Position numbers and translations under genes: made by a program. Source: Bacillota bacterium (GTDB lineage: Bacteria; Bacillota; UBA994). Taken from it: a stretch of 44,442 nucleotides of DNA. The notes beneath the pieces were generated by a model that made no database searches, was not told where the DNA came from, and was given only the letters and a program-made list of their open reading frames with translations. This document shows positions 2,096 to 10,654 of this stretch, one piece after another (positions within the stretch are counted from its first letter, which is position 1; every line of letters begins with the position of its first letter). The DNA is taken from contig JAGXTJ010000005.1 of NCBI GenBank assembly GCA_018333655.1, positions 1 through 44,442 on the forward strand, written 5' to 3'.

Positions 2096-2120
2096 AGCGG
2101 TAGGGACGGAGCCTTTTGCT
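2096..2120 (+). repeat. REP hairpin copy 1
   Basis: A 25-bp unit: left arm AGCGGTAGG, loop GACGGAG, right arm CCTTTTGCT. The arms pair imperfectly. It lies between the two divergent AAA genes. Confidence 0.75.
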
Positions 2121-2212
2121 TGTCGCGCCCGCTTGCCAGCGCTCGAGTTTCTGGCTATACTAAAGTATAAGTTTAGTTTAGACGCAAATCGCTTAACCTA
2201 GGGGTGAGGGTA

Positions 2213-3466
2213 TTGTACATTAAGCGCGCTGTAGAAGATGCGGTGAATAGGGTGGCTAGAAGTTTCCCTGTGCTGCTCGTAACCGGGCCGCGTCAGGTGG
2301 GTAAATCTACATTGCTGGAGCACCTGTCTATGCCAGGGCGTCAAGTGGTCAGCCTAGACGACCCCGAGATAAGATTTTTGGCCAAGACTGATCCGGCCCT
2401 ATTTATGCAGCGCTACAAACCACCAGTACTGATTGACGAAATTCAGTATGCGACTGAACTATTGTCGCACATCAAAATGGCTGTAGATAGGTCGAAGCGT
2501 AGCGGTGACTTCTGGCTCACCGGTTCCCAATCATTTGTGATGATGCGTGATGTTAGCGAAACCTTAGCTGGCCGAGTAGGTATTATTAATCTCTTGGGGC
2601 TTTCAAACAGTGAGATTCAGGGCCGTCCTTCGCGCGTTTTTACTACCAACCCCGAAATGTTGATGTCTCGTCTTGGTGAAGTGCAAAAGATGGGGCTTAC
2701 TGACTTGTATGAGCGCATCTTCAAAGGGTCTATGCCGCAGCTTTACGCCTCTGATGACGTTCCTTGGGAGATGTTTTATCGTTCCTACGTCGAGACCTAT
2801 CTCAAGCGCGATATCAAAGATCTAACGCAAGTGGCGGATGAAATGGACTTCTATAAGTTCATGGTTGCCGTGGCGGCCCGGACTGCCAAGCCAGTTGTCT
2901 ACGAGGAGATTGCCTGTGAATGCGGTGTCTCTGCCCCCACCGTAAAGAAATGGATTTCAATCCTAGTATCATCTGGCGTGGTGGCCCTTGTGCAACCCTA
3001 CCACAACAATGTGCTTAAGCGCATCACCAAGATGCCCCTGCTGCATTTTCTAGATACGGGGCTATGTGCCTATCTTTTGCGTTGGAGCAGCCCGGAGGTG
3101 CTTGAGAAGGGTGCTATGTCAGGGGCGTTCTTCGAGAGCTATGTTTTTTCGGAGATCTATAAGAGCTTTTTGAACGTTGGGCGGGAGCCACCCATTTACT
3201 ACTACCGAGACAAAGACAAGAAAGAGATTGACCTTCTCATCCACGAAAATGGAACCCTCTACCCGATTGAGATAAAGAAATCAGCGTCACCAGGGCGGGA
3301 TTCTATTAAACACTTTGGCGTCTTGAAGCCGGTGCAGGACCCAGAAAAACATGGCGGCCTAGCGCAGGCAAAAACCATCATCGGAAATGGAGTGGTCATC
3401 TGCATGAGCAATGATTTGCTGCCCATAGATGCCACCAATTGGCGTGTGCCGGTGTGGATGATTTAG
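2213..3466 (+). CDS. AAA_14/DUF4143-type ATP-binding protein
   Basis: About 417 residues. Walker A is GPRQVGKST near residue 25-33 and Walker B is PPVLIDEIQY near 70-80. A winged-helix-like segment (CECGVSAPTVKKWISIL) follows, then the C-terminal DUF4143 signature FFESYVFSEI with YYYRDKDKKEIDLLI and LYPIEIKKS, a PD-(D/E)XK-like core. The family is common in accessory regions and has no settled function. Start: AGGGGTGAGG sits at a good distance from TTG 2213, giving the family-typical MYIKRA opening. A GTG at 2204 lies inside that ribosome site and is less likely. Confidence 0.8.
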   Translation: MYIKRAVEDAVNRVARSFPVLLVTGPRQVGKSTLLEHLSMPGRQVVSLDDPEIRFLAKTDPALFMQRYKPPVLIDEIQYATELLSHIKMAVDRSKRSGDFWLTGSQSFVMMRDVSETLAGRVGIINLLGLSNSEIQGRPSRVFTTNPEMLMSRLGEVQKMGLTDLYERIFKGSMPQLYASDDVPWEMFYRSYVETYLKRDIKDLTQVADEMDFYKFMVAVAARTAKPVVYEEIACECGVSAPTVKKWISILVSSGVVALVQPYHNNVLKRITKMPLLHFLDTGLCAYLLRWSSPEVLEKGAMSGAFFESYVFSEIYKSFLNVGREPPIYYYRDKDKKEIDLLIHENGTLYPIEIKKSASPGRDSIKHFGVLKPVQDPEKHGGLAQAKTIIGNGVVICMSNDLLPIDATNWRVPVWMI

Positions 3467-3481
3467 CAACAAGCAACAGCA

Positions 3482-3506
3482 AGCAACAGGGACGGAGCCT
3501 TTTGCT
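3482..3506 (+). repeat. REP hairpin copy 2
   Basis: Left arm AGCAACAGG, loop GACGGAG, right arm CCTTTTGCT, just after the DUF4143 gene stop. It is preceded by degenerate AGCAACA steps (3468-3481). Together with 15 bases downstream it forms a direct repeat with copy 3 at 3616. Confidence 0.8.
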
Positions 3507-3530
3507 AGAAGCAAGTTGCAGGCGTCTCAC

Positions 3531-3599
3531 TTGCCAAACTCGGAAGTGAAACGTTGCCAAACTCGGAAGTGAAATGTTGACGAACTCGGAAGTTCCGCA
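3531..3599 (+). repeat. Three 23-bp tandem repeats
   Basis: Units at 3531-3553, 3554-3576 and 3577-3599 share TTGCCAAACTCGGAAGTGAA (third unit TTGACGAACTCGGAAGT). The block is bracketed by REP copies 2 and 3. No ORF is present. It could be a solo IS end or an operator array. Nothing else is seen in the 3467-3713 gap. Confidence 0.7.
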
Positions 3600-3615
3600 T
3601 ACAATGTCATCAATT

Positions 3616-3640
3616 AGCGTTAGGGACGGAGCCTATTGCT
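3616..3640 (+). repeat. REP hairpin copy 3
   Basis: Left arm AGCGTTAGG, loop GACGGAG, right arm CCTATTGCT. The downstream bases AGAAGCAAGTTGCAG are the same as after copy 2, so copies 2 and 3 form a longer direct repeat around the 23-bp array. Confidence 0.75.
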
Positions 3641-3713
3641 AGAAGCAAGTTGCAGCCGTCCAGAACGGATGAGGGGTAGCGTGTTGATAAACTTTGCTCG
3701 AGAGGTGATGAAT

Positions 3714-4817
3714 GTGTTAAAGAAAATACGGATCTCTGGCTACAAAAGTCTGCGGGAGCAGACCATCGATCTTCAACCCATAAATATTCTTATTGGGGGC
3801 AATGGGGTCGGTAAGTCCAATTTTTTATCGTTTTTTCGCATGCTAAACTACATTACTAGCAAAGCACTGCAATTGTACGTTGCCAGAGTAGGTGGGGCGA
3901 ACACTCTTTTGTACTACGGGGCAAAGAGTTCACCCCAATTGGAGTGTAGCCTAACTTTTGATACGAAGGCAGGCTCGAACGTTTACGAGGCGAAATTTGC
4001 GTGTGCCGCGGGAGACACGCTTATTTTCCTGGATGAGCTAGTCTCTTTCACAAGGACAAACTCCTCGGCAAAAACGCCAAAATCTTTGGGTTCGGCAGGA
4101 CATAAAGAGACAATGCTTGATGACGCAAAGGTACCAGAGCTAGCGAAGACGGCACAAGTTATAAAGTCGATTATGAGTATGTGGCGAGTGTATCATTTTC
4201 ATGATACATCACCAGACGCACGAGTTAAGAAGAAGTGCAGCATCGCCGACAACGAATACCTGCGTGACGATGCCGGCAACCTAGCGCCTTTCCTATATCG
4301 CTTACGCTCGGAGCATCCAGCCTACTACGGCAGAATTGTTGAATATGTCCGTTTGTTCGCTCCGTGGTTTGGAGACTTTGTTCTAAAACCGGATGTAGAA
4401 AACACAGGCACCATTTCTTTGTCATGGCGAGAGAAGGACTCAGACTACCCATTCGGTGTAGACCAGTTATCTGATGGCACTCTTAGGATGATGGCTCTGA
4501 TATCTATGCTTCTGCAGCCCTCTCTGCCATCATGCATCATTCTAGATGAACCAGAATTAGGATTGCATCCATTCGCGCTGAGGCTACTTGCCGACATTAT
4601 CAAAGCAACATCCCGTAAGTCCCAGGTTGTGGTGGCTACCCAGTCGGCCTACTTTGTGGATCAATTTACGGCCAATGACATCTTGGTGGCCGAACGGAGC
4701 AACAAACAGTCAGTTTTCAAGAGACTGGATGAAAGCGCGCTGGAGTTATGGTTAAAGGAATACTCGTTGGGTGAACTATGGGAGATGAATGTTTTTGGCG
4801 GCAGGCCGGCGTTATGA
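3714..4817 (+). CDS. OLD/AAA_21-type ABC-like ATPase
   Basis: About 367 residues. It opens with the RecF/OLD-like KKIRISGYKSLREQTIDLQ and INILIGGNGVGKSNF (Walker A near 28-35). An ABC-signature-like DQLSDGTLRMMAL follows, then Walker B CIILDEPELGLHP near 274-286 and a H-loop-like VVVATQSAYF. It therefore has the SMC-like head typical of defence-associated ATPases such as OLD and AriA. GTG 3714 has GAGGTG at seven bases. ATG 3708 is too close to that site, and the reading frame open from 3636 has no better signal. Its stop overlaps the next start (ATGA at 4814-4817), so the two are translationally coupled. A two-gene nucleotide-sensing or defence unit is likely, by analogy with ATPase+TOPRIM pairs. 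Confidence 0.8.
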   Translation: MLKKIRISGYKSLREQTIDLQPINILIGGNGVGKSNFLSFFRMLNYITSKALQLYVARVGGANTLLYYGAKSSPQLECSLTFDTKAGSNVYEAKFACAAGDTLIFLDELVSFTRTNSSAKTPKSLGSAGHKETMLDDAKVPELAKTAQVIKSIMSMWRVYHFHDTSPDARVKKKCSIADNEYLRDDAGNLAPFLYRLRSEHPAYYGRIVEYVRLFAPWFGDFVLKPDVENTGTISLSWREKDSDYPFGVDQLSDGTLRMMALISMLLQPSLPSCIILDEPELGLHPFALRLLADIIKATSRKSQVVVATQSAYFVDQFTANDILVAERSNKQSVFKRLDESALELWLKEYSLGELWEMNVFGGRPAL

Positions 4818-5491
4818 CGCGCGTGAATATCATTGTTGAGGGGCAAACGGAGGAGACATTTGTAAGAGATGTTTTAGCACCTTATCTTGGAACATCAGAG
4901 GTATATGTTGCCGCTAGGCGAGTCTTAACTAGCAAGCGTGGAGACAAGTATTTTCGAGGCGGCTTAGCTAACTACTCTTTGCCTAAAAGAGACATCGAGA
5001 TGTGGCTCTCACATGACAGGACAGCTTGGTTAACCACGATGTTTGATTTTTACCGCCTGCCGAGCGATTTTCCAGGCTACGAGGCTGCCCTGCAATGTGA
5101 CGATCCCTACGAGGCTGTTTCCATATTGGAGAAATCTATGAAGAGTGATTTAGGCAGTCAGAGAGTACTACCATAGATACAGCTACACGAGTTTGAAGCA
5201 TATTTGTTTTCCGATGTCGCCTCGATTTCCGATCACTTTTTCGATGTTTGTGGTCTCAAGGAAAAGCTAGAGGTAGTTAGGAGTAGTTTCCTGAGCCCAG
5301 AACACATTAACTCTGATCCTGACCTAGCACCGTCTAAGAGATTAATTGACTGTGTGCCCGGGTATGGGTATCTCAAAGCAAGTTCTGGACCCATTATCGC
5401 TGGGCGGATCGGGATAGACACAATTCGAAGGGAGTGCCCCCACTTTGACTCATGGATCAAGCAGCTTCTGGCTGTCGGCGGGAGAATCTAG
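4814..5491 (+). pseudogene. DUF4276 TOPRIM-like partner, interrupted by an in-frame TAG
   Basis: Translation from ATG 4814 gives VNIIVEGQTEETFVRDVLAP, the acidic opening motif of DUF4276 proteins, then MFDFYRLPSDFPG. A TAG at 5174-5176 (codon 121) interrupts the same frame, which continues at once as IQLHEFEAYLFSD and on to 5491. Family members, as I recall them, usually carry Tyr before IQLHEFEA, so one base change from TAC/TAT to TAG explains it. Both halves are otherwise intact, about 225 codons in all. Other genes in the window stop normally at TAG, so code reassignment is unlikely. The final stop lies inside REP copy 4. The coupled ATPase upstream is intact, so loss of this partner may be recent. 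Confidence 0.8.
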
Positions 5492-5508
5492 GGACGGAGC
5501 CTGTTGCT
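5484..5508 (+). repeat. REP hairpin copy 4 (contains a stop codon)
   Basis: Loop GACGGAG at 5493-5499 and right arm CCTGTTGCT at 5500-5508. The left arm ends in TAGG, whose TAG (5489-5491) is the stop codon of the DUF4276 frame. Confidence 0.75.
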
Positions 5509-5593
5509 TGTGTTGGCAAGAGGCAACAACACTATTCGCCACGGCGAAGCGAAAGAGGGCAGGGATGAGGAGTAGCCTAAAGGAGGCAAGAGA

Positions 5594-7366
5594 GTGAACC
5601 TGAATAATTTTATGCTTCACATTGATCCTGTGATTGTGGATCGAGGTGAAGGTTACTACGCTGAGGGGAGTGTCAGCGGCGTGATTTGTGTCGATGTGGG
5701 GCGCTATCGCGCTTTTGTGCGAGGTAGCGATATTTACGACGTTAACGTTGCTGTCGGGCCGCGTGGAGACATTACCTACTCAGAATGTAGCTGTCCTTAC
5801 GAGGGTGGACCCTTCTGCAAGCACGAAGTCGCGGTGTTTTATTCCCTTGCGGCGGAGGTGAAGAAAGCGGCTGCTGGGGGAAAAAGTAGCGGGGCAAGCG
5901 TGTCTTTGCTGGCCGAGCTGGCAACCGCGCTTACGGCACTCAGCCCCGATGAGCTACAAAGCATTATCCTAGAGTTGGCCACCGAGGATGCGCACTTAAC
6001 TAGGGCGCTCCTGTGCCAGCATGTGTCCAAGGATGCAGAGCTGCGCGTGGCACGTGAGATAATTTGGTCGACAATTGACGATACCGTCAACAGAGCCAGT
6101 GTGTCGGGCCGAGTGGTTGCTATGCGCGGCTGCGATGTCGTGCTAGACAAGGCGAAGGCGCACATTGTAGCCGGACGGATTGAACGTGCCATTGAGTTGT
6201 GCATGGCGGTGCTTGATGCTGCGGTTAAGGTGCTACCTGTGCATTATGAAGAATGTGAAGACGATGAAGACGATGAAGACGATGAAGACGCTGAAGACGA
6301 TGAAGAGGATGCCGATGATGACGAGGACGAGTGTTTTGAAGGTGAAGTAATCGGCGTCTCTAACCCTGAAGACGAGCCGGAAACTGTTGAGGAATGTCTT
6401 AGTGAAGTGGAGGCGGCGCTTGTTGCCGCAACCCATATGCGGAGCGCGCCTGAACAGGTAGAGCTGTTCGATCGAATGCACGCGGCGATGCGGGAGTACG
6501 TCGGCAGCAAGAGATATGATGTAGCTATCGGCCTGCTCGGCGCCTGTGGGCCGCTGGCGACTAACCTAGTTGTGGGGCGCAAACTTCGCGAGGTTTATCA
6601 GGAGTACTGGAAGCATCTTAAGTCGACGTATCGGGGGTATGATGAGCGCTTAGAAGCCCTCCTCGGGCACCAACACGCAATGCTTACGCAGCATGGCAGC
6701 GGCGCGGAGTTGGACGAGTTTCTGCTGGCAAATCTAGCGCACGGTGACTTTCGGAAGGAAGCGGTCACTCGGGCCCTAGAGCGTGGGGATGCTGCGCTAG
6801 CCTTAGAATTAGCTGAAGTGGGTCTGAAAAGTGCGAGTCCATGGATGGGCATCACATGGAAGAAGTACATGGTCGAAGCGTATGCGCAGATGGGTAACGT
6901 TGGCAGGCAACGAGAGTTAACCGAGGATTTGCTGTTTGCGGACGGCTTTGTGTGGCATGCGCAGCTCAAAGCCTTGTATGCGGCAGAGGAATGGCCCATG
7001 GTGCGGGCGAAACTGGTGGGCCGGTACGAGGGAAAAGAACAGCGTGAGCATGACTTTATGGAATTTCTGGCTGCAGAAGGCCTAGTGGATAAAATATTGG
7101 AACGCTGCCGAAAAAGCGGGCATCTGCTGGAGACATGGTACCCGTACTTGACAGAACACTATGGGGCAGAAGTTAAGCACCTGTTTATACAGCACATTAT
7201 GCGCTTGGCCATCCAAGCCAGTTCACGCAGTGCATATGCTGGGATTAGAAGGGTAGCACGCCTGTACCGCGAGGCCTGTGGCGATGCGGCAGAAGCTGAG
7301 ATCATAGCTGCACTCAGGCAGACATATGCGCGCAAGCATGCCTTTATGGACGAGCTCTCGCGCTAG
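5594..7366 (+). CDS. SWIM zinc-finger protein with acidic spacer
   Basis: 590 residues. The SWIM motif CxCx7CxH is seen at C65, C67, C75 and H77 (CSCPYEGGPFCKH). An alanine/leucine-rich helical domain follows, then an extremely acidic stretch (about residues 217-250, encoded in part by GAAGACGAT repeats), then a long helical repeat region resembling TPR-like solenoids to the end. SWIM domains bind DNA or proteins and often sit beside SNF2 helicases, but none is adjacent here. Start GTG 5594 has AAAGGAGG at eight bases. Exact role unknown. Confidence 0.8.
   Translation: MNLNNFMLHIDPVIVDRGEGYYAEGSVSGVICVDVGRYRAFVRGSDIYDVNVAVGPRGDITYSECSCPYEGGPFCKHEVAVFYSLAAEVKKAAAGGKSSGASVSLLAELATALTALSPDELQSIILELATEDAHLTRALLCQHVSKDAELRVAREIIWSTIDDTVNRASVSGRVVAMRGCDVVLDKAKAHIVAGRIERAIELCMAVLDAAVKVLPVHYEECEDDEDDEDDEDAEDDEEDADDDEDECFEGEVIGVSNPEDEPETVEECLSEVEAALVAATHMRSAPEQVELFDRMHAAMREYVGSKRYDVAIGLLGACGPLATNLVVGRKLREVYQEYWKHLKSTYRGYDERLEALLGHQHAMLTQHGSGAELDEFLLANLAHGDFRKEAVTRALERGDAALALELAEVGLKSASPWMGITWKKYMVEAYAQMGNVGRQRELTEDLLFADGFVWHAQLKALYAAEEWPMVRAKLVGRYEGKEQREHDFMEFLAAEGLVDKILERCRKSGHLLETWYPYLTEHYGAEVKHLFIQHIMRLAIQASSRSAYAGIRRVARLYREACGDAAEAEIIAALRQTYARKHAFMDELSR
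6257..6301 (+). repeat. 9-bp in-frame microsatellite (five units)
   Basis: Five consecutive 9-bp units GAAGACGAT (fourth is GAAGACGCT) encode repeated Glu-Asp-Asp in the SWIM protein. Units are in frame, so length change by slippage would vary the acidic tract without frameshift. Confidence 0.8.
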
Positions 7367-7388
7367 CGCCACCAGCAGCAGGGACGCC

Positions 7389-7413
7389 AGCAGCGGGGAC
7401 GGAGCCTTTTGCT
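7389..7413 (+). repeat. REP hairpin copy 5
   Basis: Left arm AGCAGCGGG, loop GACGGAG, right arm CCTTTTGCT. A partial copy (AGCAGCAGGGACG) precedes it at about 7372-7386. It lies between the convergent SWIM gene and the AlbA_2 pseudogene. Confidence 0.75.
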
Positions 7414-7415
7414 TG

Positions 7416-8449
7416 TTACTTGCTACGACGGTACCTAGTTGCCCTAGCGGCTCCGAAGCGAACAATCTTCCCTTGGCGTAGTAGATCGTTAAGCACATTG
7501 GTGGCTGGAAAGGATGAGCATTGGAGGAGGTTTTCAACATCGCGGCGAGTCACCGTACCTTGGTGAGCTAAGAGCTGAAGTACCTTGTCCGCATCTGCTA
7601 GGGCGGAGTCAATGACGGGGTTTTCATTAATGTTGGGTAGTTGCACCAAGAAGGATGATGGGGCGGGCGAAAACTTAGGTTGGCGAGAGTGCCCAGCATA
7701 GCTCTCAATAATTCTTTGAATTCCTGTTCCATAGCTTTCTACCAACTCTAGCCGGTAAAATACGGCGGCTAACACGGCATTTCGTGATTGAGAAACGCCG
7801 CTCATGATATCAGCAAGTGTTAGGCCCTTGACTAGACCACCAAGGGACAAAAACTCCATGCGGTCTGCGAATATGTTTATAAGGATACTACCGGAGTAAT
7901 CGTAATCACGGTGCACGATGCAGTTTAGCAGAGCTTCCCTGAGCGCATGTCCTCGAACTTCACTTGGCGCTCCGCATAGAACTTGCTTGCGTACGCAAAG
8001 GTAAGCTCTTGGTTGGGGGAGCGTGCCTTGTCAAAGGTTGTGCCGTCACTATCGCGGATCATTTGTCGGATTGCTTCTTCGCTCGCGGGTGCCGCGATGA
8101 CGCCATGGCGCACGGACACCCCGCTGGGTTTAAGGCCTTTGTCAGATAAATGATAAGGTCGTTTTGCGCCGCGCGATACGCAGATGCGAATGATGCTCTT
8201 GCCTTGTTCTAGCAGTCGCTCAACTGTGGTATAGGAAGAAAGATCTGGCCTGATGCCATTAAGGATCATATTGCTGATGCGTTCCATTTCTGCTTCGGTA
8301 TTAGGTACGCCGACAACTTGGCCATCGCGAGCAATTCCTATGAAGATTTCGCCACCGTTTGAATTAGCAAATGCCACAATTTCCTTCTTGATGTCAGCCG
8401 TTACTGCTTCCTTCAGCTCAACAAGCGCGCTTTCACTGTATCGCATCAT
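7416..8449 (-). pseudogene. AlbA_2 / RecG-like regulator with internal deletion and frameshift
   Basis: The 5' part (8449 to about 7925) encodes the AlbA_2 domain (VELKEAVTADIKKEIVAFAN, GGEIFIGI) and breaks off after FYAERQVKFED. The 3' part is in another frame and reads RGHALREALLNCIVHRDYDYSG, the HATPase_c_4 motif, then the conserved LINIFADRMEF and GVSQSRNAVLAAVFYRL. It ends with a winged-helix-like tail. In intact relatives over 100 residues normally separate these two motifs, so a deletion that was not a multiple of three has joined them near 7950-7962. Family members are predicted transcription or stress regulators. The 5' ORF could still make a free AlbA_2 domain. Confidence 0.8.
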
Positions 8450-8473
8450 AATCCCTCCTAATCGACATTTTCA

Positions 8474-8491
8474 ATATTATATACATAATAT
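8474..8491. promoter_or_regulatory. AT-rich inverted repeat upstream of AlbA_2 gene
   Basis: ATATTAT, four bases, ATAATAT: a perfect 7-bp inverted repeat 25 bases upstream of the AlbA_2 start and between divergent genes. It is a possible operator, by position only. Confidence 0.35.
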
Positions 8492-8510
8492 CGCGATTTT
8501 ATATCTATTT

Positions 8511-8533
8511 CAACTAGGACGGAGCCTTTTGCT
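8511..8533 (+). repeat. REP hairpin copy 6 (upstream of RAYT)
   Basis: Loop GACGGAG at 8518-8524 and right arm CCTTTTGCT at 8525-8533, with a decayed left arm (CAACTAG). It lies 27 bases upstream of the REP-associated transposase start. Confidence 0.7.
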
Positions 8534-8560
8534 AGTCGACTTGGAAAGGAGTTATGCGAA

Positions 8561-9337
8561 ATGCCAAGACAAGCACGCGAAAAAAGCCCCACAGGGTATT
8601 ACCACATCATGATGCGGGGCATCGACAGGGATTTTATCTATCAGTCTAGTAAAGACAAGACCTACTTTGTTGATCTGCTGAAGGAAGCTGAGCAGCTGGA
8701 CATAGTAGCGTATTGCCTAATGGATAACCATGTGCACTTGGTGGTGCAGGGGGATATCGTGGCCCTCTCCTTAGCCCTGCGGAAGTTAAATATCAAGTAT
8801 GCTATGCATTATAATTTTGTGAACAAGAGGGTAGGGCATGTATTTCAAAATCGCTATCGGAGCGAAATTGTCGAAGACGACAAGTACCTAGCACACCTGA
8901 TAAGGTACGTGCATAATAACCCTGTGAAGGCCGGCCTCGTGGCCGAGGCGCGACAGTACAGGTGGAGCAGTTATGGCGAGTATCTAGGCAACCTCAACAT
9001 AGTATCTCCTATACAAAAGCGGGTGGTCCTTGGACTCTTTCCTAAGGGAACCGAGAGCTTTAAGATATTTCACCTTGAGCCGGATGAGAACGAGTACCTA
9101 GACACCGCCGAGGATATAGAGCGCGACAGGCTAAAGCGTGCGCAAACCATAGTGGCTGCCTTTTGCAGCACACGGGAGATCAAAGACCATAGTTTTCTCA
9201 AGAGTAACCCAAAACAAACGGAGGAACTCGTGGCAGAACTGCTGCGCCACACCAAGCTAAGCCACCGCAAGATTGCCAGCCTGTTAGACATCAACGCGTA
9301 CTACGTGCACCAAGTCAGTAGAGGCGGGAGCAGCTAG
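8561..9337 (+). CDS. REP-associated tyrosine transposase (RAYT, IS200-like Y1_Tnp)
   Basis: 258 residues of the HUH/Y1 transposase family. The opening GYYHIMMRGIDRDFIYQ, the metal-binding DNHVHLVV (H57, H59) and the nucleophile region LIRYVHNNPVKAGLV (Tyr116) are all present. A C-terminal helix-turn-helix-like segment (SHRKIASLLDINAYYVHQV, about 233-252) probably adds DNA recognition. Start ATG 8561 has AAGGAG upstream. In known RAYTs the gene is single copy and acts on hairpin REPs in trans. Here it is flanked by REP copies 6 and 7, and the same hairpin is scattered through the first 10.65 kb. It appears intact and potentially active. Confidence 0.9.
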   Translation: MPRQAREKSPTGYYHIMMRGIDRDFIYQSSKDKTYFVDLLKEAEQLDIVAYCLMDNHVHLVVQGDIVALSLALRKLNIKYAMHYNFVNKRVGHVFQNRYRSEIVEDDKYLAHLIRYVHNNPVKAGLVAEARQYRWSSYGEYLGNLNIVSPIQKRVVLGLFPKGTESFKIFHLEPDENEYLDTAEDIERDRLKRAQTIVAAFCSTREIKDHSFLKSNPKQTEELVAELLRHTKLSHRKIASLLDINAYYVHQVSRGGSS

Positions 9338-9356
9338 CACCAGGGGCCGAGCGCCA

Positions 9357-9381
9357 AGCACCAGGGACGGTGCCTGTTGCT
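9357..9381 (+). repeat. REP hairpin copy 7 (downstream of RAYT)
   Basis: Left arm AGCACCAGG, loop GACGGTG, right arm CCTGTTGCT, 19 bases after the RAYT stop. A partial unit (AGCACCAGGGGCCGAG) comes just before it at about 9337-9352. Confidence 0.75.
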
Positions 9382-9409
9382 TGGAATGCATAGCATTAGT
9401 TAAGGCCGC

Positions 9410-9438
9410 TTGAAGGTGCTTTAGATTTAGCATATAAT
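9410..9438 (+). promoter_or_regulatory. Sigma-A-type promoter of hicBA
   Basis: TTGAAG (9410-9415), 17-bp spacer, TATAAT (9433-9438), 33 bases ahead of the hicB start. Confidence 0.6.
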
Positions 9439-9471
9439 CATGTTAGAAATTGGTTTAGGAGGAGCGCTGCA

Positions 9472-9687
9472 ATGAGACTGACCGCTATTATCGAGCGTGA
9501 AGGCGATGGCTATGTCGCTCTGTGTCCGGAACTTGATATTGCGAGCCAAGGAAATACAGTGGAGCAATCGCGGAGAAATTTACTGGAAGCAGTGGAACTA
9601 TTCTTTGAAGCAGCGTCTTCCGAAGAAATAGGGACCCGGCTACGCGGAGAGGTTTTTGTCACCCACATTGAGGTAGCGCGTGGGTAG
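9472..9687 (+). CDS. hicB: HicB-family antitoxin
   Basis: 71 residues: RLTAIIEREGDGYVALCPELDIASQG, a typical HicB N-terminus (strand, turn, CPELD), then the SRRNLLEAVELFFE helix. It is the short form lacking a C-terminal RHH or HTH domain. AGGAGG lies before ATG 9472. It overlaps hicA by eight bases (GTG 9680 inside the hicB end), so the pair is coupled, with antitoxin first. The protein should bind and neutralise the HicA RNase. Confidence 0.85.
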   Translation: MRLTAIIEREGDGYVALCPELDIASQGNTVEQSRRNLLEAVELFFEAASSEEIGTRLRGEVFVTHIEVARG

Positions 9688-9940
9688 GTTGCGGGTACTT
9701 AGCGGCAAAGAGCTGTGCGTGATTTTGTCTGCGCACGGCTTTATTGAGGTGCGGAGGCGAGGTAGCCATATTATTATGCAGAAGATGATCCTCCAGAGCA
9801 CGATAACCGTCCCGATCCCAGATCACAGCGAAATTCGAATTGGGACGCTTCAATCGCAAGCACCAGGGACGGAGCCTGTTGCTAGGAAGAAGGCGCCATG
9901 CGTTGCATTTCTGTGTGCTCTTTTGTATACTAATATGTAG
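9680..9940 (+). CDS. hicA: HicA-like mRNA interferase with replaced C-terminus
   Basis: Residues 1-59 match the HicA (YcfA) dsRBD-like fold: LRVLSGKELCVILSAHGF, then RRRGSHIIMQ with the catalytic His at 30, then ITVPIPDH and IRIGTLQS. After residue 59 the frame enters REP copy 8 (9859-9883) and continues as 27 unrelated residues, reading even through the promoter of the next operon. Normal HicA proteins end with a short helix (GTL.SI..QAGL type), which is missing. The toxin may be inactive or destabilised. Start GTG 9680 overlaps hicB. The catalytic core is intact, so residual activity is possible. Confidence 0.75.
   Translation: MGRLRVLSGKELCVILSAHGFIEVRRRGSHIIMQKMILQSTITVPIPDHSEIRIGTLQSQAPGTEPVARKKAPCVAFLCALLYTNM
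9859..9883 (+). repeat. REP hairpin copy 8 (inside hicA)
   Basis: Left arm AGCACCAGG, loop GACGGAG, right arm CCTGTTGCT. It occupies codons 60-68 of the hicA frame and replaces the native 3' end. Confidence 0.8.
9903..9931 (+). promoter_or_regulatory. Sigma-A-type promoter of the RHH-MazF pair
   Basis: TTGCAT (9903-9908), 17-bp spacer, TATACT (9926-9931). The 5' leader would be only about 15-20 bases before the antitoxin start. Confidence 0.6.
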
Positions 9941-9954
9941 AGGAGGTGAGCTAC

Positions 9955-10206
9955 ATGGCGAGTACTACGGTAAGGTTAGCCGAGGAACATGTTCGTATGT
10001 TGAGGGAGTTAGCAAAGCAGTCAAATGAGTCTATGCAGATTGTGCTGGGCAAGGCGATTGAATCTTATAGGAGACAACTTCTCCTTCAGGCGACTAATGA
10101 TGCCTATGCCTGTCTAAAGGCTGACGCCGTCTTGTGGGCAGAAGAAGTGGCCGAACGGCAGATCTGGGAATTTACGCTCGGTGACGGCTTGGAGGACAGA
10201 AAGTGA
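9955..10206 (+). CDS. Ribbon-helix-helix antitoxin of a MazF pair
   Basis: 83 residues. The N-terminus MASTTVRLAEEHVRMLRELAKQSNESM has the RHH pattern (TTVRL strand, two helices), probably DNA-binding and autoregulatory. The remainder is helical with an acidic end that likely wraps the toxin. ATG 9955 has AGGAGGTG at six bases. A GTG at 9946 lies inside that site and is rejected. The stop overlaps the toxin start (GTGA), showing coupling. Type II antitoxin by context; the exact family is not certain. Confidence 0.8.
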   Translation: MASTTVRLAEEHVRMLRELAKQSNESMQIVLGKAIESYRRQLLLQATNDAYACLKADAVLWAEEVAERQIWEFTLGDGLEDRK

Positions 10207-10541
10207 GGCCTTCGCGAGGTGAAATCTGGCTGGTGTCGCTCGACCCTGTCGTGGGGCGCGAGCAAGCAGGCATGCGCCCAGCACTAATTGTGTCGGTTAA
10301 TCAGTTTAATCATGGGCCCGCCGAACTGGTCGTTCTAGTGCCTATAACTACAACACGCAGGAATGTACCTCTACATGTCACGCTAAGCCCGATCGAAACA
10401 GGGCTTAGTTACGTGAGCTCTGCGAAGTGCGAGGACGTAAGGTCGGTATCTTTGAAGCGACTAGATCGCTGTCTAGGAGCTGTTGCTCCTAGCACGCTGG
10501 AGTTAGTCGAAGATCGAATGCGCATCCTGTTGGGTTTATAG
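10203..10541 (+). CDS. mazF: MazF/PemK-family mRNA interferase toxin
   Basis: 112 residues with the CcdB/PemK fold pattern: RGEIWLVSLDPVVGREQAGMRPALIVS, then ELVVLVPITTTRRNVPLHV, then SYVSSAKCEDVRSVSLKRL. The RGEIW start, G.EQ.G.RPALIVS and the CEDVRSVS motif are family hallmarks. GTG start at 10203 overlaps the antitoxin stop, with GGAGG upstream. It should cleave single-stranded mRNA, being held inactive by the RHH antitoxin. Confidence 0.9.
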   Translation: MRPSRGEIWLVSLDPVVGREQAGMRPALIVSVNQFNHGPAELVVLVPITTTRRNVPLHVTLSPIETGLSYVSSAKCEDVRSVSLKRLDRCLGAVAPSTLELVEDRMRILLGL

Positions 10542-10629
10542 TAGCATCGGATACGGCTAGCTAAGCATGCGATAGCAGCGTACTTCTGATCGGTTAATGC
10601 GAGATAGAAATGAAAGGGGAAGGGGTGCA

Positions 10630-10654
10630 AGCAGCAGGCTCCGTCCCTACTGCT
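10630..10654 (-). repeat. REP hairpin copy 9 (inverted; contains a stop codon)
   Basis: On the minus strand: arm AGCAGTAGG, loop GACGGAG, arm CCTGCTGCT, pairing throughout with one G-U. The TAG of the first arm is the nitroreductase stop codon. It is the only copy in this orientation and the last of the run. Confidence 0.8.

What the first reader, a model, noticed from the sequence alone, without database searches (positions are those of the whole stretch)
3714..5491. ATPase + DUF4276 two-gene system with a nonsense codon in the second gene
The OLD/AAA_21 ATPase and the DUF4276 gene overlap by ATGA, a coupled pair similar in architecture to known ATPase+TOPRIM defence systems (for example PARIS and OLD-related systems, which use different partner families). 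The DUF4276 frame is broken at codon 121 by TAG where a conserved Tyr is expected, with both halves otherwise intact. The pair may be a defence unit whose effector was recently silenced, or expression may need amber suppression.
Basis: partly seen in the sequence, partly recalled or inferred. Interest (0 to 1): 0.75.

Follow-up and report, generated by a model that had tools for sequence, protein, structure and literature searches.

The report
Phage-defence pair with broken second gene
This is one more copy of an already catalogued candidate anti-phage gene pair (an ATPase plus a Toprim-type nuclease) whose nuclease gene is cut short by a single stop codon in this genome, an ordinary case of gene decay (or a base-call error) and not a sign of an altered genetic code.

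Summary
An intact AAA_21/OLD-type ATPase (GTG 3714-4817) overlaps a DUF4276 gene (ATG 4814-5491) by ATGA, and TAG at 5174-5176 is codon 121 of the DUF4276 frame. The pair matches PADLOC's candidate defence system HEC-01 (HEC-01A E=5e-138, HEC-01B E=1e-75). In 85 related loci the ATPase always lies directly upstream of DUF4276, usually with a 4-base overlap, and several loci sit inside defence islands, on plasmids or in a viral contig. The predicted DUF4276 fold (pLDDT 96) has an OLD-family Toprim structure as its best solved match, so an ATPase sensor plus Toprim nuclease, as in PARIS, is the best model. No relative has a stop at codon 121 (Tyr in 68 of 86). Three others have a TGA stop elsewhere. 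TAG is a normal stop here: 19 of 37 window genes end in it, RF1 is present, none of 49 tRNAs reads UAG, and there is no PylRS. Suppression is therefore very unlikely. The 120-residue product loses the invariant E126/E128 and most of the C-terminal half. The effector is probably recently inactivated, or the stop is an error in a draft assembly. It lies in a repeat-rich, foreign-looking island with a second broken gene.

The parts
3714..4817 (+). HEC-01A-type AAA_21/OLD-like ABC ATPase, 367 aa, intact; Walker A GGNGVGKS, LSDGT signature, Walker B IILDEPELGLHP, TQS
   Evidence: ORF and translation; AAA_21 E=5.6e-28; PADLOC HEC-01A E=5e-138; motifs aligned with 4 relatives
4814..5491 (+). HEC-01B-type DUF4276 gene (predicted Toprim nuclease), 225 codons if read through, broken
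   Evidence: PF14103 E=5.8e-49; HEC-01B E=1e-75; predicted fold with an OLD Toprim region as best PDB match
4814..4817 (+). ATGA stop/start overlap of the two genes
   Evidence: Sequence; a 4-base overlap is the commonest arrangement in the relatives, about 61 of 85
5174..5176 (+). in-frame TAG at codon 121 of the DUF4276 gene, between two short strands just before the invariant HEFE motif
   Evidence: sense codon in all aligned relatives
5489..5508 (+). terminal TAG of the DUF4276 gene merging into a copy of the repeat GGGACGGAGCCTNTTGCT (5491-5508)
3489..3640 (+). two copies of the same repeat (3489-3506, 3623-3640) upstream of the pair

Best explanation
The pair is a HEC-01-type two-gene anti-phage module: a translationally coupled ABC-type ATPase that probably senses infection and holds or activates a DUF4276 Toprim-fold nuclease, which then cuts nucleic acid (DNA or tRNA) and stops infection or growth, as OLD/PARIS-type systems do. 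In this genome the nuclease gene carries a nonsense codon at position 121, so translation ends with a 120-residue fragment lacking the HEFE motif, the APSKR motif and the C-terminal helices; the system is very probably dead. The module sits in a probably horizontally acquired, repeat-rich island that is also decaying elsewhere. Shown: pair architecture, family membership, stop codon, normal use of TAG as a stop, absence of a second DUF4276 gene. Inferred: nuclease activity, sensor role, phage defence, and that the stop is real in the population.
For: HEC-01A/B profile matches. All 85 related loci carry the ATPase directly upstream, mostly with a 4-base overlap. Predicted fold pLDDT 96.1; best PDB match is the C-terminal (Toprim) region of a Xanthomonas OLD protein (6njv, probability 0.99, E 1.5e-3), with the PARIS complex further down (8ux9_A, E 0.12). 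Relatives lie next to PglZ (L105), a DrmD-like helicase and type III restriction (L109; helicase also L137), type I specificity (L073), on plasmids and in a viral contig between baseplate genes and an integrase (L135). A same-family genome has the pair intact with a sense codon there (G004). TAG 19, TAA 12, TGA 6 as terminators; RF1 intact; no CUA tRNA; no PylRS. Only one DUF4276 gene in the genome, so no rescue in trans. Three other relatives also carry a nonsense codon, each elsewhere. A second broken gene (SLFN_AlbA_2) lies 2 kb away. The pair and the neighbouring gene 5594-7366 are absent from the same-genus genomes.
Against: No decay beyond the stop is visible: all 18 near-invariant C-terminal columns are kept and there is no rate excess in the C half, which fits a very recent event but also a base-call error. 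No phage data for this pair. The fold match to OLD is moderate (TM about 0.4). Several relatives sit next to housekeeping genes, and near and far neighbours were not clearly different in defence content.
Confidence: 0.72

Rival explanations
1. The TAG is a base-call or assembly error (or a minority strain variant) in a draft genome and the real gene is intact; the system is then an ordinary functional HEC-01 pair.
For: Draft of 57 contigs, 96.8% complete; single substitution; no sign of relaxed constraint after the stop; the pair lies within 5.5 kb of the end of a contig that is the whole window.
Against: Other window genes, including long conserved ones, read as open frames; the unusual V118 three codons upstream hints that the stretch really changed; the other broken gene nearby argues for a decaying island.
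Confidence: 0.2
2. The gene is expressed full length by amber suppression, pyrrolysine or programmed read-through at UAG.
For: Both halves intact with conserved residues after the stop.
Against: TAG ends 19 of 37 window genes, and this gene too; RF1 present; no CUA-anticodon tRNA among 49; no PylRS above cut-off; stop not conserved in any relative.
Confidence: 0.03
3. The 120-residue N-terminal fragment is itself a useful product, for instance a dominant-negative partner that keeps the ATPase in check.
For: It keeps E9, E13, D78 and E106, which are near-invariant, and the upstream ATPase is intact.
Against: It ends inside the predicted fold and lacks E126/E128, invariant in all 86 relatives; the nonsense codons in other relatives fall at codons 35, 40 and 193, so no common truncated length.
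Confidence: 0.04
4. The pair is not a defence system but an OLD-like ATPase/nuclease unit with a housekeeping role.
For: Some OLD-family ATPases have non-defence roles (PMC12796447 abstract); several relatives are flanked by metabolic genes.
Against: Sporadic distribution: 2 of 15 class genomes and 10 of 398 in the phylum, several of these weak; next to BREX, DISARM-like and restriction genes and in plasmids and a viral contig.
Confidence: 0.1

Closest known systems
HEC-01 (Hma-embedded candidate 01, PADLOC-DB models HEC-01A and HEC-01B)
   Same: Both genes match the models strongly (E=5e-138 and 1e-75), adjacent and coupled
   Different: Here HEC-01B is interrupted at codon 121, and no Hma genes were found around the pair in the window
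PARIS (AriA ATPase + AriB Toprim tRNase)
   Same: Two-gene ABC ATPase + Toprim arrangement; the AriA profile also hits the ATPase (E=4.7e-28); the PARIS complex appears among weak fold matches
   Different: P0001 does not match AriB models; the partner is DUF4276
OLD-family nucleases (single-chain ATPase + Toprim; Gabija GajA, retron Eco8 effector)
   Same: ATPase hits Old/GajA profiles; the DUF4276 model best matches the C-terminal region of a Xanthomonas OLD protein
   Different: Two separate genes instead of one chain
MADS MAD3 ATPase
   Same: ATPase hits MAD3 (NF047739, E=1.2e-26)
   Different: 93.8 bits against a cut-off of 420, so below family level; no MADS operon seen

Membership tests
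HEC-01 | ATPase matching HEC-01A | tested here: met
   PDLC04175 E=5.1e-138 over residues 2-365
HEC-01 | Adjacent DUF4276 gene matching HEC-01B | tested here: met
   PDLC04188 E=1.3e-75, residues 1-221, read through the stop
HEC-01 | Both genes intact and expressible | tested here: not met
   TAG at codon 121, no suppressor found; the locus is a degraded member by descent, not a working one
HEC-01 | Confers phage resistance | not testable with these tools
   No experiment; the source preprint for HECs is not held
PARIS | AriB-type Toprim effector gene beside AriA | tested here: not met
   P0001 matches only HEC-01B models in PADLOC
OLD-type Toprim nuclease | Toprim fold | tested here: inconclusive
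   Best PDB match is OLD 6njv, probability 0.99 but E=1.5e-3 and TM about 0.4
OLD-type Toprim nuclease | Catalytic acidic residues conserved | tested here: inconclusive
   E9, E13, D78, E106, E126, E128 near-invariant; metal-binding geometry not checked, no coordinates available
Amber-recoded gene | UAG-decoding tRNA and synthetase | tested here: not met
Amber-recoded gene | TAG conserved at the same codon in homologues | tested here: not met
   0 of 86 relatives

The most novel reading that the evidence does not exclude
The stop at codon 121 is kept on purpose: either low-level UAG read-through limits the dose of a toxic Toprim effector, or the 120-residue fragment acts as an inhibitor of the ATPase, giving a tuned or decoy HEC-01 system.
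Probability: 0.04. Interest if true: 0.55.

Novelty: new member of a known kind. Interest (0 to 1): 0.2.

Why it matters
It settles that a DUF4276/AAA_21 pair with an amber codon is an instance of the catalogued candidate HEC-01 with a silenced effector, not a recoded gene. The by-product is more useful: 85 loci in many phyla support HEC-01 as a stable two-gene unit and suggest that DUF4276 is the Toprim effector, which can be tested directly with intact relatives. Nonsense codons in 3 of about 84 relatives suggest that effector loss in such pairs may recur.

Tried and rejected
Pyrrolysine/amber suppression: rejected. Internal restart after the stop: the only in-frame starts found in the next 220 bases are TTG 5204 (no clear ribosome site, and it already lacks the HEFE motif) and GTG 5354. 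Second copy of the effector in the genome: none. The TAA flagged in G313 is upstream of the true start, so not a broken gene. Solved structures by sequence: no match even with a 58-sequence profile. Phage records: no match. Near-versus-far defence enrichment around the pair: both sets contain defence genes and the comparison was not informative. Literature: DUF4276 in no held paper; HEC-01 as a defence system only as an item in a list for Desulfovibrio piger. Empty-site comparison: not possible, since the flanking gene 5594-7366 is absent from the family's other genomes.

Full report
Observation. The two genes are as described. The ATPase runs from GTG 3714 to TGA 4815-4817 and has no internal stop; the second gene starts at ATG 4814, giving an ATGA overlap, and ends at TAG 5489-5491. 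In its frame TAG at 5174-5176 is codon 121. Read through, the 225-residue product matches DUF4276 (PF14103, E=5.8e-49) over almost its whole length, and the ATPase matches AAA_21 (E=5.6e-28). A whole-genome search flags the same gene with one internal TAG and finds no second DUF4276 gene.

Identity. Against PADLOC the pair is HEC-01: HEC-01A E=5e-138 and HEC-01B E=1e-75. HEC stands for Hma-embedded candidate; an archaeal survey says that several HECs, including HEC-06, showed antiviral activity, citing a preprint that is not held here (PMC12988326). The weaker hits of the ATPase to AriA, MAD3, AbiLi, Old and GajA put it in the OLD-like ABC ATPase group.

Relatives. A scan of GTDB contigs gave 80 loci from many phyla, plus one good viral contig; 12 plasmid records also carry the gene and no phage record does. 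In all 85 loci examined with an ATPase call, the ATPase lies directly upstream, about 61 of them with a 4-base overlap. Contexts include a BREX PglZ gene directly downstream (L105), a DrmD-like helicase upstream and a type III restriction gene downstream (L109), a type I specificity gene (L073), an SNF2 helicase and methyltransferase gene on an Aeromonas plasmid (L137), and a viral contig with the pair between baseplate genes and an integrase (L135). Many other loci have ordinary neighbours, and a near-versus-far comparison was not informative.

The stop codon. In 86 aligned relatives column 121 is Y68, N9, H8, F1; the codons are TAT 39, TAC 28 and others, never a stop. Three relatives have an internal TGA instead, at codons 40, 193 and 35 (L066, L068, L080); the ATPases show no internal stop in 82, with one frameshift. 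These numbers are too small to say that effectors are lost more often than ATPases, and the relatives were ranked by similarity, which hides badly broken copies. The window protein keeps 37 of 38 near-invariant columns, including all 18 after the stop; by the rule of three fewer than about 17% of such sites have changed since, so the stop is recent or an error. N and C halves are about equally similar to G004 (66/120 and 56/99).

Suppression. TAG ends 19 of 37 window genes (TAA 12, TGA 6), and the DUF4276 gene itself also ends in TAG. RF1 is present and intact. The 49 tRNA genes found include none with anticodon CUA. The pyrrolysyl-tRNA synthetase model gives only two sub-threshold hits at 26 bits, and 13 of the 14 control genomes also give a hit, 12 of them below the cut-off. 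The genome is about 97% complete, so a missed suppressor is possible but unlikely.

How it would work. The alignment-based model of the read-through protein has pLDDT 96.1. Its best solved match is the C-terminal region, which holds the Toprim domain, of a Xanthomonas OLD protein (6njv, probability 0.99, E=1.5e-3); a chain of the PARIS complex is at rank 24 with E=0.12. In PARIS the AriA ATPase hexamer holds the AriB Toprim nuclease and releases it on sensing a phage protein, and AriB then cuts tRNA (PMC12409363). By analogy HEC-01 is most likely an ATPase sensor with a Toprim nuclease effector; the substrate is unknown and this step is inference. Codon 121 lies between two short strand segments (118-119 and 122-123) just before the invariant HEFE motif (126-128), so the fragment loses E126/E128, P162-E163, the APSKR motif and all C-terminal helices.

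Setting. The window is an entire contig. Its first 10 kb has lower G+C (0.48-0.52 in most kilobases) than the rest (mostly 0.53-0.58) and, with the next kilobase, holds nine copies of GGGACGGAGCCTNTTGCT between genes, of only 15 in the genome; same-genus genomes have 0-2 copies, while genomes of another genus in the family have about 36-75, including G004, which has the intact pair. This suggests, without proving, that the island came from a related genus. An IS200-like (Y1_Tnp) transposase gene at 8561-9337 lies between two copies, and a SLFN_AlbA_2/HATPase_c_4 gene at 7419-8449 (minus strand) is frameshifted and looks shortened.

Verdict. A degraded member of a catalogued candidate defence system. 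The amber-suppression reading is not supported. Real inactivation is favoured over a base-call error, but reads are needed to decide.

Noticed in passing
window 2103-10647: Nine copies of the repeat GGGACGGAGCCTNTTGCT between genes, of 15 in the whole genome; rare in the same genus, abundant in another genus of the family. Probably a REP-like element tied to the Y1_Tnp transposase at 8561-9337.
   Followed up: partly
window 7419-8449 (-): SLFN_AlbA_2 and HATPase_c_4 parts of what looks like one gene, in two frames and apparently shortened: a second broken gene in the island.
   Followed up: partly
window 3531-3599: Two near-identical 23-bp tandem copies (TTGCCAAACTCGGAAGTGAAACG) and a third degenerate one about 115 bases upstream of the ATPase, found nowhere else in this genome or in the family's other genomes; possible operator.
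   Followed up: partly
window 2204-3466: AAA_14/DUF4143 ATPase, a strong match to the PADLOC candidate PDC-S01 (E=2.5e-102), next to an AAA_35 gene on the other strand.
   Followed up: no
L098:8459-11571: Tandem duplication of the HEC-01 pair in a Rhodothermales genome.
   Followed up: no
G004:C1:63080-64869: A second, diverged HEC-01-like pair (ATPase 28% identical) in the same genome that holds the intact close relative.
   Followed up: no
L066, L068, L080: In-frame TGA codons at codons 40, 193 and 35 of otherwise full-length DUF4276 genes.
   Followed up: partly
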